Shown in pieces: positions 31,147 to 42,809 of a DNA stretch of 64,000 nt. Origin of the DNA: Cupriavidus phytohabitans (GTDB lineage Bacteria > Pseudomonadota > Gammaproteobacteria > Burkholderiales > Burkholderiaceae); assembly GCF_000426345.1 (NCBI RefSeq), contig NZ_AUFE01000002.1, forward strand, positions 186,001-250,000. The letters are read 5' to 3'. Position numbers and translations under genes: made by a program. Numbering within the stretch: position 1 is the stretch's first letter; each line of letters starts with the position of its first letter. The notes under the pieces are model-generated. The model saw only the letters and a program-made list of their open reading frames with translations, was not told the origin of the DNA and did not search any database.

Positions 31147-31176
31147 CATTGACCCGCATTGACCCGCATTGACCCG
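31147..31176. repeat. Triple 10-base tandem repeat
   Basis: CATTGACCCG occurs three times in a row. The last copy contains the TTG that is the probable start of the next gene, so the repeat array sits where its ribosome binding site would be. Confidence 0.9.
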
Positions 31177-31780
31177 GCCCTCCGATTTGCCTCGACCCCG
31201 ATCCGCCGGGCTTGACCGGCTCCTCGCCGACATCGCTTCCTGCCGCGCCTGCGCCTTGCCGCACGAACCGCGGCCGGTGGTGCAGGCCGGCGCCCATGCG
31301 CGCCTGCTGATCGTCGGCCAGGCGCCCGGACGGCGCGTGCATGAAACCGGCATCCCCTGGAACGACCCTTCCGGCGACCTGCTGCGCAGCTGGCTGCAGC
31401 TGACGCCGGAGCAGTTCTATGACGCCGGCAAGGTGGCGATCGTGCCGATGGGGCTGTGTTATCCGGGCAAGGGTGCCAGCGGCGACCTGCCGCCGCGGCG
31501 CGAATGCGCGCCGCTGTGGCATGCGCCGCTGCTGGCGTCCATGCCGGATATCCGGCTGACGCTGCTGGTCGGCCGCCACGCACAGGCCTGCTACCTCGGC
31601 AGCCGGGCCGGAGCGACGCTGGCCGATACCGTCGCCGCCTGCGCCGACTACCTGCCGGCATTCTTCCCGCTGCCGCACCCCAGCCCGCGCAACCGCTTCT
31701 GGCTGCGGCGCCACCCGTGGTTCGACACCGACGTGCTGCCACTGCTGCGGCAGCAGGTGGCGCTGGCGCTGTCCGGCTGA
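31169..31780 (+). CDS. Uracil-DNA glycosylase-superfamily protein
   Basis: A 203-residue protein of the UDG fold. The catalytic-loop motif is LLIVGQAPGRRVHETGIPWND (about residues 47-67) and the C-terminal LPHPSPRNRFWLRRHPWF resembles motif II (HPSPRN). An N-terminal CRAC (residues 25-28) recalls the Fe-S cluster cysteines of family 4/5 enzymes, but the remaining two are not evident. Function may be uracil excision or something derived from it. No ATG fits; TTG 31169 or TTG 31187 starts the protein. It converges with the quorum-sensing kinase 20 bases away. Confidence 0.75.
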   Translation: MTRPSDLPRPRSAGLDRLLADIASCRACALPHEPRPVVQAGAHARLLIVGQAPGRRVHETGIPWNDPSGDLLRSWLQLTPEQFYDAGKVAIVPMGLCYPGKGASGDLPPRRECAPLWHAPLLASMPDIRLTLLVGRHAQACYLGSRAGATLADTVAACADYLPAFFPLPHPSPRNRFWLRRHPWFDTDVLPLLRQQVALALSG

Positions 31781-31799: not shown

Positions 31800-33128
31800 T
31801 CAGTAGTCCTTGTGCGGGAAGCGGATGTCGAACTCCGTGAACTCGTGCTCGACGGAACGGCAACTGATGCCGGCCCCCCAGCTGGTCAGCACGTTCTGGC
31901 AGAACGCCAGCCCGATGCCGGTGCCACGGTGCGCCGGGTAGGAGAAGAAGGGCTGGAACATGCGCGCCAGCACCTTCGGCGGCACCCCCGTCGCGGTGTC
32001 GCGGAAGGTGACGTGCACCCCGTCCGGCCGCACCTCGCAGTGGATCCGGATATCACCCTTGCCGGCGCGCTTGATCGCTTCGAGCGCGTTCTTCAGCAGG
32101 TTGGTCATGACCAGCCCGAACAGCTGCGCGTTGCCGAAAACGCGCACCGGGCCGGGCAGATCGAACGTGACGATGTCGCGGCCTGGTTCATCGAACGGAA
32201 ACCGGGCGATGGTGTCGCGGATCACGCCCCCCAGATCGAACAGCTCTCGCGTGGCCTTTTCCGGATTCTTGGAGTTGGCCACCAGCAGTTCGATGCTGTT
32301 GCTGATGTGCGCGATGTCGGACTCCATGCGCGCCACCGCCTGCATCAGCCCCTCGCGGCGCGGCGCGTCCTGGTCCAGCGCTGCCGGCAGCCGCGCCTTG
32401 AGGCCGCTCGCGCTGATGCTCAGGCTGGTCAGCGGCGTACGCAGCTCATGCGCGACGGTGGCCAGCGCCGCCGCCATGCCGCGCCGCTTCTGCTCGACCA
32501 GCAACTGGCGGTCGAGCTTGATCACCACCAGCACCGAGATCACGAAGCCGATGATCGGCAGCTGCAGCAGCACCGGCTGCCATGGGATCCCGCCCATGGA
32601 ATTGCCGGCCAGCACGAACAGCGCCACCGCGGCCGCGGCGCCGGACAGCAGCGAGATGGTCGCGAACGCCGTATTGAAGTGATAGAGGATCACCACGGCA
32701 ATGATGACCGACTCCGCCCAGGCCATCGACCCGCCGTTCTCCAGGTACAGGAAGATGAAGGCGAACGGCATGCCCACCGTGATCGCAAACAGCGCGTACG
32801 GCGGCAGCCAGCGCCGGTGCGAGAACGCCCTCGCAAACAGCAGCGGCACGAACAGCGCGGTGCAGACCAGGCGCAGCCACAGGTTCTCGTAGGGCTGCGG
32901 GAATACATACGACCAGATCAGGTAGTAGAGCGGGTGGCCGATGACCCCCAGCGCGCCCACCATCTGGATCCGCCGCAGGCGGATGACGCTCTCCTCGTCG
33001 AGCAGGATGGCCCGTGCCGCGGTATCGAACACCAACTGCCAGGTCCGGCGGGCGAGGCCGGCAAGTCCTGACAGGCCGGCGCGGCGCTTGCGGCCGCCCG
33101 GGTCCGCCAACTCTGCTTCCATCTCCAA
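31800..33128 (-). CDS. Sensor histidine kinase, LqsS/CqsS-like (alpha-hydroxyketone sensing)
   Basis: A 442-residue inner-membrane kinase. Six hydrophobic segments occupy about residues 55-205, with no periplasmic domain to speak of. The dimerisation box AHELRTPLTSLSIS follows with the phosphorylated His227, then N-box NLLKNALEAI and the GTGIGLAFCQN ATP-lid motif. The membrane-sensor layout, and a quorum-signal synthase ending three bases upstream, identify it as a CqsS/LqsS/JqsS-type receptor for alpha-hydroxyketones. It lacks the receiver domain of CqsS. TTG 33128 has AGGAG at six bases; ATG 33122 lacks proper spacing. The cognate response regulator is not beside it. Confidence 0.85.
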   Translation of the reverse strand: MEMEAELADPGGRKRRAGLSGLAGLARRTWQLVFDTAARAILLDEESVIRLRRIQMVGALGVIGHPLYYLIWSYVFPQPYENLWLRLVCTALFVPLLFARAFSHRRWLPPYALFAITVGMPFAFIFLYLENGGSMAWAESVIIAVVILYHFNTAFATISLLSGAAAAVALFVLAGNSMGGIPWQPVLLQLPIIGFVISVLVVIKLDRQLLVEQKRRGMAAALATVAHELRTPLTSLSISASGLKARLPAALDQDAPRREGLMQAVARMESDIAHISNSIELLVANSKNPEKATRELFDLGGVIRDTIARFPFDEPGRDIVTFDLPGPVRVFGNAQLFGLVMTNLLKNALEAIKRAGKGDIRIHCEVRPDGVHVTFRDTATGVPPKVLARMFQPFFSYPAHRGTGIGLAFCQNVLTSWGAGISCRSVEHEFTEFDIRFPHKDY

Positions 33129-33131
33129 CGG

Positions 33132-34436
33132 CTACTCCTCGCGGGAGCTTGCGGCGAGCTCCTCCTTGGGATTGGGGGATTTGCGCCGGCTGCGGCGCGT
33201 CGATGACCATTCTTCCAGACGCACCTCGTCGCGGATACTGGCGAGAACGCTGACCAGCCGGTCGATTTCACCGGCGCTAAGTTTCGCATGCAGGGTAAGT
33301 CGCATCAATGCCCGATTTTTGGGGGTTGCCGGCGAGCAGAATACCGCGCCGAAGATGCCGCGCTGCTGCAGCGCGTTGCGCAGGACCATCACCTGCGGCT
33401 CGGTGCCGGCCTCCAGCCCGATGATCTGCTCGGAGCCGTCGCTGATGTTGTATCCCAGGGCACTGATCGCTTCGCGGGTTGCGCGGGTGATCGCATGCAG
33501 CTGTTCGCGCCGGTGGTCCGCCGCGGCGATGAAGTCGATGGCGCCGTCGAACCACGCGATCTCGTGGCGCAGCAGCCCCGAACTGAAAATGGCCGGCCGC
33601 GATTCGACCGCGAAGAAGTCCTTGAACATGCTGGAGCAGGTGACGAAGCCAGCGCGCCCGGCGAAGGCCTTGGCCAGCGACGCGGTGCGGAAATGCACCC
33701 GCTCCGACAGCCCCAGCGCCGGCACCAGCCCGCCGCCCGACGGCCCGTGGGTGCCGAGCGAGTGCGACTCATCCACGACCAGCACCGAACCCGACGCTTC
33801 CGCCACCGCGACGTATTCCTCCAGCGGCGCTACGCTGCCGGTGGTGGAGTACACCGCGTCGACCATGATCACGCCGGGGCCAAAGCGCTCGGCCTGGCGG
33901 CGCGCATGGCCCACGTCGTTGTGGCGGATCGGCACGGCCTGCGCGCCGGCGGCGGTGATGCCTTCCCACAGCGAGGCGTGGCCGTTCATGTCGATATAGA
34001 CCGGCACCCCCGGCCCGGCGATGCATTGCACCAGGCCGACGTTGGCGGCCCAGCCGGACTGCGCGATCAGCCCATCCTCCGCCTGCATCAGGTTGGCCAG
34101 CTTGCGCTCGACGTGGCGCTGCGGCGTCTCGCCGTACTGGAACACGGACGACATCAGCAGCTCGGGCGGCTCATCCAGCAGCGCGCGGGCCTGCGCCTCC
34201 AGCAGCGGCCGCTCGCCCAGCAGGCACAGGTAGTCGTTGCTGCTCAGGTGCAGCGCGTCGGAACCCGGCTTGCGCCCGTGCAGCAGGTGGTCGCCGCCCC
34301 ACAGCTTGCCCAGCCGGGCATCGAAGTGCTCTGACATGCGGGCTGCGATCCACTGCGGCAGCGGCGGCGTGGCCACGCTGCGGGGGGAGCAGGGAACGGG
34401 GTGAGTCGGCTGCGGACGCTGGACGGCAGAGAACAT
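33132..34436 (-). CDS. Alpha-hydroxyketone autoinducer synthase (CqsA/LqsA/JqsA-like)
   Basis: A 434-residue PLP-dependent alpha-oxoamine synthase. Signs of the AONS fold are SSNDYLCLLG (66-74), SVFQYGE (97-103), VVDESHSLGTHGPSGGG with the PLP-contacting Asp222 and His225, and TASLAKAFAGRAG with PLP Lys256. The N-terminus and the adjoining CqsS/LqsS-like kinase separate it from biotin or haem synthases: enzymes of this set condense an acyl-CoA with an amino acid or SAM to give a CAI-1 or LAI-1-type signal. The C-terminal 30 residues are Arg/Lys-rich. RBS AGAGGA precedes the ATG. It leads a two-gene operon with the kinase. Confidence 0.87.
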   Translation of the reverse strand: MFSAVQRPQPTHPVPCSPRSVATPPLPQWIAARMSEHFDARLGKLWGGDHLLHGRKPGSDALHLSSNDYLCLLGERPLLEAQARALLDEPPELLMSSVFQYGETPQRHVERKLANLMQAEDGLIAQSGWAANVGLVQCIAGPGVPVYIDMNGHASLWEGITAAGAQAVPIRHNDVGHARRQAERFGPGVIMVDAVYSTTGSVAPLEEYVAVAEASGSVLVVDESHSLGTHGPSGGGLVPALGLSERVHFRTASLAKAFAGRAGFVTCSSMFKDFFAVESRPAIFSSGLLRHEIAWFDGAIDFIAAADHRREQLHAITRATREAISALGYNISDGSEQIIGLEAGTEPQVMVLRNALQQRGIFGAVFCSPATPKNRALMRLTLHAKLSAGEIDRLVSVLASIRDEVRLEEWSSTRRSRRKSPNPKEELAASSREE

Positions 34437-34885
34437 CGGATTTCCTCTGATAGGTAGGGCTTGTCGGAGAGGATCGCTGGCGGCATTGCCAGGGACCTGG
34501 GGATTGCAGGCAAGTCGGGGCGTCTGCACGTCAGCGATCACTGTGGCAAGTCCTCGGTGTCGATTGTGACCCGGCTTCCACCAGTTCAACGCTTGTTTGA
34601 GCGGGAAGGGCCACGCTGCCGTTGCATTGTGGCGCGGCCGGCGCTCGCTGGCATGTCAGTTCATCCCGATTCGTCAATGAGTGCCTGTTAAGGCATATAT
34701 AGGCAGTTGTACTCACAAATACCACCCTCCGCCCAGGCGGAACCCGCCTAGGGTTTGTCCTGAAAACAACGCGTAGCGGCTTGTTTTGATTGCGATTTCT
34801 GGCGACGCGAGGGGCCTCGGGCGGCCACCTGGCCGAACTTTTGCCTTGACCTCCGGCGCCGGCCGCCGATAATGCTGCAAATCAC
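34437..34885. other. Divergent region between synthase and dioxygenase
   Basis: About 450 bases without a gene. It contains an AT-rich patch (GCATATATAGG near 34695) and a hairpin-like CCGCCCAGGCGG element near 34730. Promoters for the leftward quorum-sensing operon and the rightward dioxygenase operon must lie here; I cannot fix their hexamers. Confidence 0.4.
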
Positions 34886-34899
34886 TGCAAACGTTTGCA
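34886..34899 (+). promoter_or_regulatory. LacI-family operator O1
   Basis: TGCAAACGTTTGCA is a perfect 14-base palindrome with the central CG typical of LacI/GalR operators. It ends 13 bases before the dioxygenase ATG and abuts its AGGAGG site. An extra half site, CTGCAAATC, lies just upstream. The operator at 38954 differs by one base, and a LacI gene stands at 41772. Confidence 0.75.
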
Positions 34900-34912: not shown

Positions 34913-35857
34913 ATGGAGACATCGATCGCGCGGCAGGGATCGCCGGTATGGCCGGCCCCGCGCCCCACGCTGATAGACGACGAGCATTCGGTCACCGGCA
35001 TCGTCCAGGCGGCGATGGCGGGCACCGCCAGCCCGCGCCTGCGCTTCGTCATGGACACGCTGGTCCGGCATCTGCACGGCTTCCTGCGCGAGGCGCGCCT
35101 GACCGATGAAGAGTTCGAGTTCGCGCTGGAATGGCTCGCCAGCATTGGCCAGGCTACGCACGCCACGCACAACGAGGTTGTGCTCGCGGCCGATGTGCTG
35201 GGTTTGTCGACGCTGGTGACGGTGATGAACAACAGCACCCGCGACGGCCGCACGCCGGGTGCCTTGCTGGGACCGTTCTACCGCGCCAACGCGCCGCGCT
35301 ATGCCTGCGGCGACTGCGTAGTGCAGGACGATGCGCCCGGCCTGCCGCTGCTGGTCAGCGGCACCGTGCGTGGTACCGACGGCGCACCGCTGGCCGGCGC
35401 GCTGGTCGAGGTATGGCAGGCCTCTCCGGTGGGCTTGTACGACAACCAGGACCCGACCCAGCCCGACCGCAATTTGCGCGGCTGCTTCCATGCCGATGCC
35501 GACGGCGGCTATCGCTTCCGCACCGTGCGCCCGGCCGGCTATCCGGTGCCGACCGATGGCCCGGTCGGCGCGCTGCTGGCCGCGCAACAGCGCCATCCGT
35601 ACCGGCCGGCGCATATCCACTTCATCGTCGCGGCGCCGGGTTATCGGACCCTGGTGACGCAGGTGTTTGCGGACGAGCCCGACAAGCTCGCCTCGGATGT
35701 CACCTTCGGCGTGCACCGGCAACTGGTCGGCACCCTGCAGCTGCACGACCAGGGCCGCAGCCCGTGGGGCGAGGTGCCGGCGCCGTTCTACACGCTGGAC
35801 TTCGACTTCACGCTGGAGCCGGGGCAGCAGACGTTCCCCAAGCCGCCGATCGACTGA
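34913..35857 (+). CDS. Intradiol ring-cleavage dioxygenase (hydroxyquinol/catechol 1,2-type)
   Basis: A 314-residue iron(III) dioxygenase cleaving an aromatic ring between its hydroxyl-bearing carbons. An N-terminal helical dimerisation domain (to about residue 105) precedes the beta-sandwich. The iron ligands are Y176 (GLYDNQ), Y210 (PAGYPVP), H234 and H236 (PAHIHF). Length and N-terminal domain fit catechol or hydroxyquinol 1,2-dioxygenases, not the shorter PcaGH subunits. RBS AGGAGG follows a LacI operator directly. It leads a run of four metabolic genes plus a porin and receptor. A 6-oxo-muconate or maleylacetate product is inferred, depending on substrate. Confidence 0.88.
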   Translation: METSIARQGSPVWPAPRPTLIDDEHSVTGIVQAAMAGTASPRLRFVMDTLVRHLHGFLREARLTDEEFEFALEWLASIGQATHATHNEVVLAADVLGLSTLVTVMNNSTRDGRTPGALLGPFYRANAPRYACGDCVVQDDAPGLPLLVSGTVRGTDGAPLAGALVEVWQASPVGLYDNQDPTQPDRNLRGCFHADADGGYRFRTVRPAGYPVPTDGPVGALLAAQQRHPYRPAHIHFIVAAPGYRTLVTQVFADEPDKLASDVTFGVHRQLVGTLQLHDQGRSPWGEVPAPFYTLDFDFTLEPGQQTFPKPPID

Positions 35858-38953: not shown

Positions 38954-38967
38954 TGCAAACGATTGCA
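38954..38967 (+). promoter_or_regulatory. LacI-family operator O2
   Basis: TGCAAACGATTGCA matches O1 at 34886 in 13 of 14 positions and is palindromic save for one central pair. It stands 73 bases before the porin start, after the cupin stop. This suggests a second repressor-controlled promoter for porin and receptor. Confidence 0.75.
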
Positions 38968-41771: not shown

Positions 41772-42809
41772 ATGTCCGAGCGCAAGCGCCTCACCCTCAA
41801 AGACCTGGCCGCCGAGATCGACGTGCATTACTCGACGGTCTCGCGGGTCATGAATCCGGCCACGCGGCACCTGGTCGCGCAGGACGTGGCGGCGCGCATC
41901 CTGGAGGTGGCCGAGGCGCGCGGCTTCCGCCCGAACCGCATCGCCGCGGGTTTGCGCACGCAGCGTTCGGGGCTGGTAGGCGTGGTGCTGCCCGATATCG
42001 CCAACCCGGTGTTCCCGCCAATCCTGGCGGGGATCGAGTCGGTGCTGGCGCAACAGGGCTACGTGCCCATCGTCGTCAACGCAGGCACTGACAAGAGCCG
42101 GCAGCGCTTCATCATCGACCAGATGATCGGCCGGCAGGTCGAAGGGCTGGTGCTGGCGACGGCGGAGCGCGAGGACGCGGTGCTCGACTACTGCATCCGG
42201 CAGCATATCCCGGTCGTCACGGTCAACCGCGGCGAAGAGGCGGGACGGGTCTCGTGCGTGGTCAGCGACAACTTGCTGGCGATGCGGCTGACGGTAGACC
42301 ACCTGGTCGGCCTCGGCCATCGCCATATCGGCCATATCGCGGGCCCGGCCGCGCTGTCGACCGGCTTCCTGCGGCGCGAGGGCTTTGTCCAGGCGGTCAG
42401 GCGGCATCGCCTGCGCCGTGACGCCTGGCACGTGATCGAGGCCGCCAGCTATTCGCGCGAGGCCGGCAAGCTGGCGTGCGCGCAACTGCTGGAAGCCTTT
42501 CCGGCGGTTACCGCCATCGCCGCCGGCAACGACCTGGTGGCGATGGGCTGCTACGACCTGCTGCGCGAACGCGGACTGGATTGCCCCGCCGACATTTCGG
42601 TGGTGGGCCACAACGACATGCCGTTCGCCGATGCGCTGACCCCGCCGCTGACCACGGTGCGCATCGCCGTCCATGAAATGGGCGAGGAGGCTGCGCGGCT
42701 GCTGCTCCGCCAGATCGACAAGCCGGGATCCGATGCCGTCACCGTGCAGCTGACGCCGCAGCTGATCGTGCGCGGCTCCACCGCTGCGCCGCACGACAGC
42801 GCCTCTTAG
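41772..42809 (+). CDS. LacI-family transcriptional regulator
   Basis: A 345-residue repressor-type regulator. The N-terminal helix-turn-helix (LTLKDLAAEIDVHYSTVSRVMNPATRH, residues 7-33) and hinge precede a periplasmic-binding-like core (GVVLPDIANPVFPPILAG, VVSDNLLAMRL, ISVVGHNDMPFADALTPPLTTV). In the hinge/recognition region it is close to the standard CG-centred operator class, and two such operators stand before the dioxygenase and porin genes of the same cluster. It is therefore the likely local repressor. The inducer is unknown, presumably the aromatic substrate or a ring-cleavage intermediate. It converges with a LysR gene. Confidence 0.9.
   Translation: MSERKRLTLKDLAAEIDVHYSTVSRVMNPATRHLVAQDVAARILEVAEARGFRPNRIAAGLRTQRSGLVGVVLPDIANPVFPPILAGIESVLAQQGYVPIVVNAGTDKSRQRFIIDQMIGRQVEGLVLATAEREDAVLDYCIRQHIPVVTVNRGEEAGRVSCVVSDNLLAMRLTVDHLVGLGHRHIGHIAGPAALSTGFLRREGFVQAVRRHRLRRDAWHVIEAASYSREAGKLACAQLLEAFPAVTAIAAGNDLVAMGCYDLLRERGLDCPADISVVGHNDMPFADALTPPLTTVRIAVHEMGEEAARLLLRQIDKPGSDAVTVQLTPQLIVRGSTAAPHDSAS

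What the first reader, a model, noticed from the sequence alone, without database searches (positions are those of the whole stretch)
31800..34436. Alpha-hydroxyketone quorum-sensing pair without a response regulator
A CqsA/LqsA/JqsA-like PLP synthase (Lys256, DESHSLG) is followed three bases on by a six-helix histidine kinase (His227) lacking the receiver domain of CqsS. In Legionella and Janthinobacterium an LqsR/JqsR regulator accompanies the pair; here neighbours are a UDG-fold gene and an intradiol dioxygenase. The signal and output are therefore open. The divergent 450-base gap may let density sensing touch ring-cleavage genes.
Basis: partly seen in the sequence, partly recalled or inferred. 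Interest (0 to 1): 0.75.

Follow-up and report, generated by a model that had tools for sequence, protein, structure and literature searches.

The report
Cupriavidus hydroxyketone quorum-sensing gene pair
These two genes are the signal maker and signal receptor of a known kind of bacterial density sensing; the regulator that seemed to be missing is present, but sits elsewhere in the genome, as is already reported for Cupriavidus.

Summary
The pair is real. The synthase (33132-34436, -) is an alpha-hydroxyketone (AHK) autoinducer synthase, far above the curated cut-off. The kinase (31800-33128, -) is its LqsS-type partner without a receiver domain. The window lies in a Cupriavidus genome; 38 of 60 Cupriavidus genomes carry the synthase.

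"Without a response regulator" holds only for the locus. The genome encodes a full-length LqsR-family regulator on another contig, as do 59 of 60 Cupriavidus genomes. It is PhcX, and its separation from lqsA-lqsS in Cupriavidus is already published (PMC10653808). The ring-cleavage link is not supported: that neighbourhood occurs at 4 of 37 other Cupriavidus loci, all near-identical, and the dioxygenase has its own LacI-type palindrome.

Leads not found in print: (1) LqsR-family genes became linked to phc genes more than once (one phc-linked clade rejected, p-AU 3.5e-10). (2) A 7-helix kinase with an LqsS-like catalytic half occurs only in genomes with an LqsR-family regulator (77 of 77 in a 299-genome sample); 45 of 51 second-class LqsR-like genes lie within 2.7 kb of one. 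In Cupriavidus it is unlinked and may be PhcX's second input.

The parts
33132..34436 (-). AHK autoinducer synthase (LqsA/CqsA family)
   Evidence: NF005526 573 bits vs cut-off 428; CqsA best in PDB; tree with Vibrio CqsA; Lys256, DESHSLG
31800..33128 (-). LqsS-type membrane histidine kinase, no receiver domain (TTG start as listed; ATG at 33122 possible)
   Evidence: HisKA + HATPase_c only; His227; within 1.6 kb (start to start) of the synthase in 36 of 37 other Cupriavidus loci, the exception L104 ending at a contig edge
34437..34912 (.). divergent intergenic region; a block near 34530-34592 resembles the upstream region of C. necator-type synthases, which have other neighbours
   Evidence: k-mers shared by four C. 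necator-type loci and the printed upstream sequences; the likeness to the window was read by eye, not scored
34886..34899 (.). 14-base perfect palindrome TGCAAACGTTTGCA just before the dioxygenase start, LacI-operator-like
   Evidence: 2 found against 0.07 expected at up to 2 mismatches in the window; exact in 5 of 5 clade loci, window included
34913..35857 (+). intradiol dioxygenase, first gene of a catabolic run; neighbour, not part of the sensing system
   Evidence: Dioxygenase_C and _N; ATG at 34913 read from sequence
38954..38967 (.). second copy of the palindrome (1 mismatch), before a gene that I read as a porin (not family-tested)
41772..42809 (+). LacI-family regulator, likely owner of the palindromes
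   Evidence: Pfam LacI and Peripla_BP_3; binding is inference
31169..31780 (+). UDG-superfamily gene, neighbour only
   Evidence: PF03167 87 bits; beside the pair at 4 of 37 other loci

Best explanation
This is the Lqs (in C. taiwanensis called Tqs, a name I recall) alpha-hydroxyketone quorum-sensing pair of Cupriavidus. Shown by sequence: the synthase is an AHK synthase; the kinase is its LqsS-type partner; the only LqsR-family match in the genome (PhcX) is on another contig, and in relatives with few contigs on another contig too, 11-28 kb from phcB where both are on one contig. Inferred: the synthase makes an AHK from an acyl-CoA and an amino donor; the AHK binds the membrane part of the kinase and changes its kinase/phosphatase balance; phosphate flows in trans to Asp111 of PhcX. 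Output would then merge with that of the Phc (3-hydroxy fatty acid methyl ester) system. The neighbouring dioxygenase operon is a passenger under its own LacI-type regulator.
For: Family score and structures; kinase domains. PhcX in 59 of 60 genus genomes, 380-401 bits over nearly the whole profile; LqsR profile and PhcX both match PDB 6sy9 best. In 14 of 16 synthase loci outside Cupriavidus an LqsR-like gene is in the fetched stretch; the other two contigs are 3.2 and 5.3 kb. Trees of synthase, kinase and regulator each place Cupriavidus with the f8 genomes in which all three genes are linked (synthase 100/99, kinase 89/87, regulator 93/94; the kinase tree carries long-branch warnings), and G458 has a linked triad whose synthase, kinase and regulator are 64, 43 and 53% identical to ours. 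Order-wide, outside the genus: 13 genomes with both synthase and LqsR-like gene, 3 synthase only, 9 regulator only, 371 neither. In G036 the pair lies between phcQ and secF, with PhcX 23 kb away. PMC10653808 states that Lqs and Phc are both functional in C. taiwanensis.
Against: PhcX is also in all 22 synthase-minus genomes, so it must have inputs other than the AHK kinase; G006 has a synthase and no PhcX match (its contamination is 8% and its contigs about 730). No phosphotransfer or co-evolution test was run. PMC10653808 says that the C. taiwanensis Lqs system has little effect on growth, motility, biofilm or EPS, unlike PhcX in Ralstonia; that fits partial uncoupling. Of the 3 synthase-only order genomes, G108 and G380 have a much weaker LqsR-like gene beside the synthase and G329 has a truncated contig.
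Confidence: 0.68

Rival explanations
1. The pair is intact, but its kinase has been rewired to another regulator (for example PhcQ or PhcR), while PhcX now serves only the Phc system or another kinase.
For: PhcX is kept in 22 of 22 genomes without the synthase and shares a contig with phcB in 48 of 59; weak Lqs phenotypes in C. taiwanensis as told in PMC10653808.
Against: PhcX is the only LqsR-family match in G000, and that family is what sits beside LqsS wherever the genes are linked. PhcQ and PhcR have their own kinase PhcS in the same run of genes.
Confidence: 0.22
2. The divergent position lets density sensing control the ring-cleavage operon.
For: Only the shared 476-base gap.
Against: Arrangement found at 4 of 37 other Cupriavidus loci, all near-identical; LacI-type palindromes before the dioxygenase and before a downstream gene, with a LacI gene in the window; the LqsR-family proteins scanned show only a receiver domain in Pfam, no DNA-binding domain.
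Confidence: 0.05
3. The synthase belongs to primary metabolism (KBL, BioF or ALA synthase) and the kinase is a chance neighbour.
For: Same fold and PLP chemistry; secondary matches to those families.
Against: 573 bits for the AHK family against 217 or less for the others; separated from two same-genome paralogues by a 100/100 branch together with Vibrio CqsA; synthase and kinase adjacent at 36 of 37 other loci.
Confidence: 0.02

Closest known systems
Lqs/Tqs AHK system of Cupriavidus (C. taiwanensis, C. necator; PMC3566124, PMC10653808)
   Same: Same genus, synthase plus LqsS kinase adjacent, LqsR/PhcX elsewhere near phc genes
   Different: Nothing essential seen; the window is one more strain, synthase 97% identical to that of Cupriavidus sp. 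LEh25. C. taiwanensis itself was not fetched by name
LqsA-LqsR-HdeD-LqsS of Legionella pneumophila
   Same: AHK synthase, receiver-less kinase, LqsR-family regulator (from PMC3376566 and PMC5289986 passages; Legionella genes not fetched)
   Different: There the regulator is in the cluster; here it is unlinked
JqsA-JqsS-JqsR of Janthinobacterium HH01 (PMC3566124)
   Same: Synthase 59% identical to that of C. necator as told in the paper
   Different: JqsR is linked
CqsA/CqsS of Vibrio
   Same: Synthase 40-43% identical in three Vibrio records
   Different: CqsS is a longer hybrid kinase with a receiver, feeding LuxU-LuxO (PMC3376566 passages)
PhcX of Ralstonia (PMC10653808)
   Same: LqsR family, beside phcBSRQ
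   Different: In Cupriavidus an AHK pair survives in 38 of 60 genomes

Membership tests
CqsA/LqsA AHK synthase | curated family score | tested here: met
   573 bits vs cut-off 428
CqsA/LqsA AHK synthase | PLP lysine and DESHSLG motif | tested here: met
CqsA/LqsA AHK synthase | groups with CqsA, not with KBL/BioF-like paralogues | tested here: met
   Vibrio CqsA used, no labelled Legionella LqsA or Janthinobacterium JqsA; the two outgroups were not family-typed and have long branches
CqsA/LqsA AHK synthase | makes an alpha-hydroxyketone | not testable with these tools
   needs LC-MS
LqsS kinase | adjacent to the synthase | tested here: met
   window; 36 of 37 other Cupriavidus loci
LqsS kinase | HisKA and HATPase without receiver | tested here: met
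LqsS kinase | six membrane helices | tested here: inconclusive
   hydropathy over 83-211, count not resolved
CqsS hybrid kinase | C-terminal receiver domain | tested here: not met
LqsR/PhcX regulator (G000:C25) | full-length family match beyond the receiver | tested here: met
   388 bits, profile positions 4-329 of 333; PDB 6sy9 E 9e-48 (that 6sy9 is LqsR is recalled, the record says 'Response regulator')
LqsR/PhcX regulator (G000:C25) | receiver aspartate | tested here: met
   Asp111 in VVDYSMP
complete Lqs cluster | lqsR linked to lqsA-lqsS | tested here: not met
   no LqsR-family gene in the window nor in the fetched stretches of 37 other Cupriavidus loci; the one weak match, L102, lies in phcQ
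complete Lqs circuit | phosphate flows from LqsS to LqsR/PhcX | not testable with these tools
   needs biochemistry

The most novel reading that the evidence does not exclude
In Cupriavidus, PhcX is a shared output node for up to three senses: the AHK kinase of this window, the neighbouring Phc methyl-ester system, and an orphan 7-helix kinase (G000:C16:96670-98091) whose catalytic half is LqsS-like and which, elsewhere in the family, is paired with a second class of LqsR-like regulators. LqsR-family regulators were drawn into Phc sensing more than once.
Probability: 0.36. Interest if true: 0.55.

Novelty: already known. Interest (0 to 1): 0.32.

Why it matters
The AHK pair itself adds one more strain to a described system. 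What could matter is its regulator. In the passages of PMC10653808 that I read, the kinase that drives PhcX is not named; the genome comparison points to two concrete candidates, the AHK kinase and a 7-helix kinase, and shows that LqsR-family regulators have been joined to Phc genes more than once. That turns the question of how two or three density signals are merged into a phosphotransfer and deletion test in a harmless laboratory strain.

Tried and rejected
Searched for an LqsR-like gene beside the pair: none. The weak match in L102 lies in phcQ. A hydropathy count did not settle the number of helices. A third class of kinase matches, 125-140 bits, is PhcR in G000 and not a second LqsS; I did not check that for every genome. 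The claim that all phc-linked LqsR-family proteins of the tree form one clade was tested and rejected (p-AU 3.5e-10); Cupriavidus with the G511 and G458 phc-linked copies alone is not rejected (p-AU 0.29), and whether the two G458 copies are sisters could not be decided (p-AU 0.47), so 'relocation' versus 'duplication and loss' in Cupriavidus stays open. Seven of the 33 regulator rows and five Cupriavidus rows were left out of the tree (L130, L131, L188, L189, L190, L082, L083; L122, L126, L128, L132, L133). Fisher values ignore kinship between genomes and are not used as probabilities. On re-checking I lowered the probability of the novel case from 0.40 to 0.36, because of the unlinked Paraburkholderia plasmid kinases and the Shk pull-down. 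The original C. taiwanensis paper (Wakimoto 2020) is not held; I know it only through PMC10653808. Searches for the 7-helix kinase/LqsR pairing in print; none seen in the listings of this open-licence library.

Full report
What is there. The window is G000:C2:186001-250000, a 7.58-Mb draft in 260 contigs; the nearest named relatives are Cupriavidus, 97% identical in the synthase to Cupriavidus sp. LEh25. On the minus strand a synthase (33132-34436) is followed by a histidine kinase (31800-33128). The synthase scores 573 bits against NF005526, the AHK-type autoinducer synthase (cut-off 428), and no more than 217 against BioF, KBL, serine palmitoyltransferase or ALA synthase models; the best solved structures are CqsA. 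In a tree of 47 synthases the Vibrio CqsA and all NF005526-type proteins are split from two paralogues of the same genome by a 100/100 branch (the outgroups have long branches and were not family-typed). The kinase has HisKA and HATPase_c only.

How common. 38 of 60 Cupriavidus genomes hold a synthase above the cut-off; 19 of 399 genomes of the order do, three of them Cupriavidus. I compared the window with the 37 other Cupriavidus loci (14, 23) plus a second synthase copy in G007 (L109). A kinase starts within 1.6 kb of the synthase start at 36 of 37; at L104 the contig ends, and that genome's kinase match is on another contig. In the main group kinase and synthase read in one direction. Six other Cupriavidus genomes have synthases that form a separate clade; in the five of these with the kinase on the same contig it is convergent. 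The dioxygenase and UDG neighbours are found at 4 of 37 loci, all with 97%-identical synthases.

The missing regulator. In 14 of 16 synthase loci outside Cupriavidus an LqsR-like gene lies in the fetched stretch; the two others are contigs of 3.2 and 5.3 kb. An alignment of 11 of these regulators (A1) finds a near-full-length relative in 59 of 60 Cupriavidus genomes, 380-401 bits, G000 included (C25:3020-3997); G006 is the exception, and seven genomes have a further, weaker match. It is not a generic receiver protein: in G000 the match spans positions 4-329 of 333, and the profile's best PDB hit is 6sy9 at E 6e-115, the next at 5e-10. All 22 synthase-minus genomes have it. In 12 of 12 inspected loci, one of them the query, it sits in one core neighbourhood (the gene names pntAB, proA, holA, leuS are my reading of translations). 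It shares a contig with phcB in 48 of 59 genomes, 11.3-28.4 kb apart start to start; with the synthase in only 1 of 37 (G036, 23 kb); in 16 of 16 synthase-bearing genomes of at most 10 contigs the two are on different contigs. In G000 itself PhcX and phcB are on different contigs, so their closeness there is by analogy. The labels phcB, S, R, Q rest on domain make-up and gene order and on PMC10653808, not on a family model: NCBIfam has no match for PhcB. A PhcB relative is in 60 of 60 Cupriavidus genomes.

Already in print. PMC3566124 (section 22 read) lists Cupriavidus homologues of the synthase; PMC5289986 (passages) lists Cupriavidus too. PMC3376566 (passages) names Ralstonia eutropha and says most such clusters have only lqsA and lqsS. 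[quoted passage not shown] taiwanensis. So the finding is explained.

Tests of the triad. Trees of synthase, kinase and regulator each join Cupriavidus with the f8 genomes G066 and G411, where all three genes are linked (synthase 28-row clade 100/99, kinase 89/87, regulator 93/94; roots are midpoints and the kinase tree has long-branch warnings). G458, of the same family, has both arrangements: a linked AHK triad with a PhcX-like regulator (53% identical to PhcX) and a phcBSRQ run followed by a second PhcX-like gene (50%). In three f37 genomes the LqsR-like gene is divergent from phcB and next to it, yet these group with an f8 linked regulator (97/97); forcing all phc-linked copies into one clade is rejected, p-AU 3.5e-10. 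Linkage to phc therefore changed at least twice, or one change was followed by transfer or reversal.

A second candidate input. Searching the genus with a kinase alignment (A2) found, besides the paired kinases, a kinase whose catalytic half alone matches at 196-219 bits in 29 of 60 genomes, 15 of 22 synthase-minus and 14 of 38 synthase-plus; a third class reaches 125-140 (PhcR in G000). In G000 the 29-genome kinase is C16:96670-98091, with Pfam HisKA_7TM, HisKA and HATPase_c. In a 299-genome sample of the family it occurs in 77 genomes, and all 77 also have an LqsR-family regulator at E 1e-30; 33 genomes have the regulator alone and 189 neither (kinship not corrected, 6 of 25 genera). Of 51 second-class LqsR-like genes (133-173 bits), 45 lie within 2.7 kb (start to start) of such a kinase; counted from the kinases, 45 of 46 copies outside Cupriavidus and g176 have one, and none of 16 in Cupriavidus or 18 in g176. 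In G463 the AHK triad and this pair are side by side. In five Cupriavidus stretches (L183, L191-L193, L204) no LqsR-like gene was found beside it. In the 16 g176 genomes listed, only the PhcX class is present; G511, the one inspected, has phcX 0.7 kb from phcB as in Ralstonia.

Against this lead. Of four named Burkholderia and Paraburkholderia plasmid loci with the kinase, two (L200, L202) have the LqsR-like gene near, with a thioesterase gene between, and two (L201 P. phymatum, L203 P. largidicola) do not within 3 kb; a search with the L200 regulator lists no Paraburkholderia plasmid at all among its 20 listed records of 21, so there the regulator is not on that replicon or is more diverged. 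Five well-completed Cupriavidus genomes (G015, G017, G031, G037, G058) have neither the AHK synthase nor this kinase but keep PhcX, so PhcX must have still another role. PMC12993560 (abstract and passages) describes Shk, a seven-helix kinase acting on the PhcA regulon in Ralstonia; whether it is this kinase I did not test, and the regulators pulled down there were PhcR, VsrC, RSc0291 and RSc0040, with RSc0040 confirmed; PhcX is not mentioned. If Shk is this kinase, that speaks against PhcX as its main partner.

Ring cleavage. TGCAAACGTTTGCA precedes the dioxygenase and recurs with one mismatch before a gene that I read as a porin; 2 found against 0.07 expected, exact in 5 of 5 clade loci. A LacI-family gene lies at 41772-42809. 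This is a simpler control of that operon than quorum sensing; binding is inferred.

Verdict. A known system in one more strain; the regulator is split off, as published. Remaining interest lies in what feeds PhcX.

Noticed in passing
L183:5671-7092 (G000:C16:96670-98091): 7-helix histidine kinase with an LqsS-like catalytic half, paired with second-class LqsR-like regulators in many Burkholderiaceae genomes (in two annotated Burkholderia plasmids with a thioesterase gene between), unlinked in Cupriavidus and in two Paraburkholderia plasmids.
   Followed up: partly
L239 and L240 (G458): One genome holds both an AHK triad with a PhcX-like regulator and a phcBSRQ run with its own PhcX-like gene.
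   Followed up: partly
L102 with L123 (G036): AHK pair between phcQ and secF, with PhcX 23 kb away: the only Cupriavidus genome of 37 with synthase and PhcX on one contig.
   Followed up: yes
L109 and L130 (G007): G007 has a second AHK synthase (59% identical) without a kinase match in the fetched stretch, and elsewhere a divergent kinase plus LqsR-like pair (27 and 30% identical).
   Followed up: no
window 38954-38967 and 34886-34899: Matching LacI-type palindromes before a porin-like gene and before the dioxygenase.
   Followed up: partly
L190 (G100, f41 g46): Small genomes of one genus carry LqsR-like genes (four in G100) and no synthase match.
   Followed up: no
L070 (G313), L109 (G007): Rieske-type oxygenase and reductase genes (my reading of translations) lie close to AHK synthases in both loci.
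   Followed up: no
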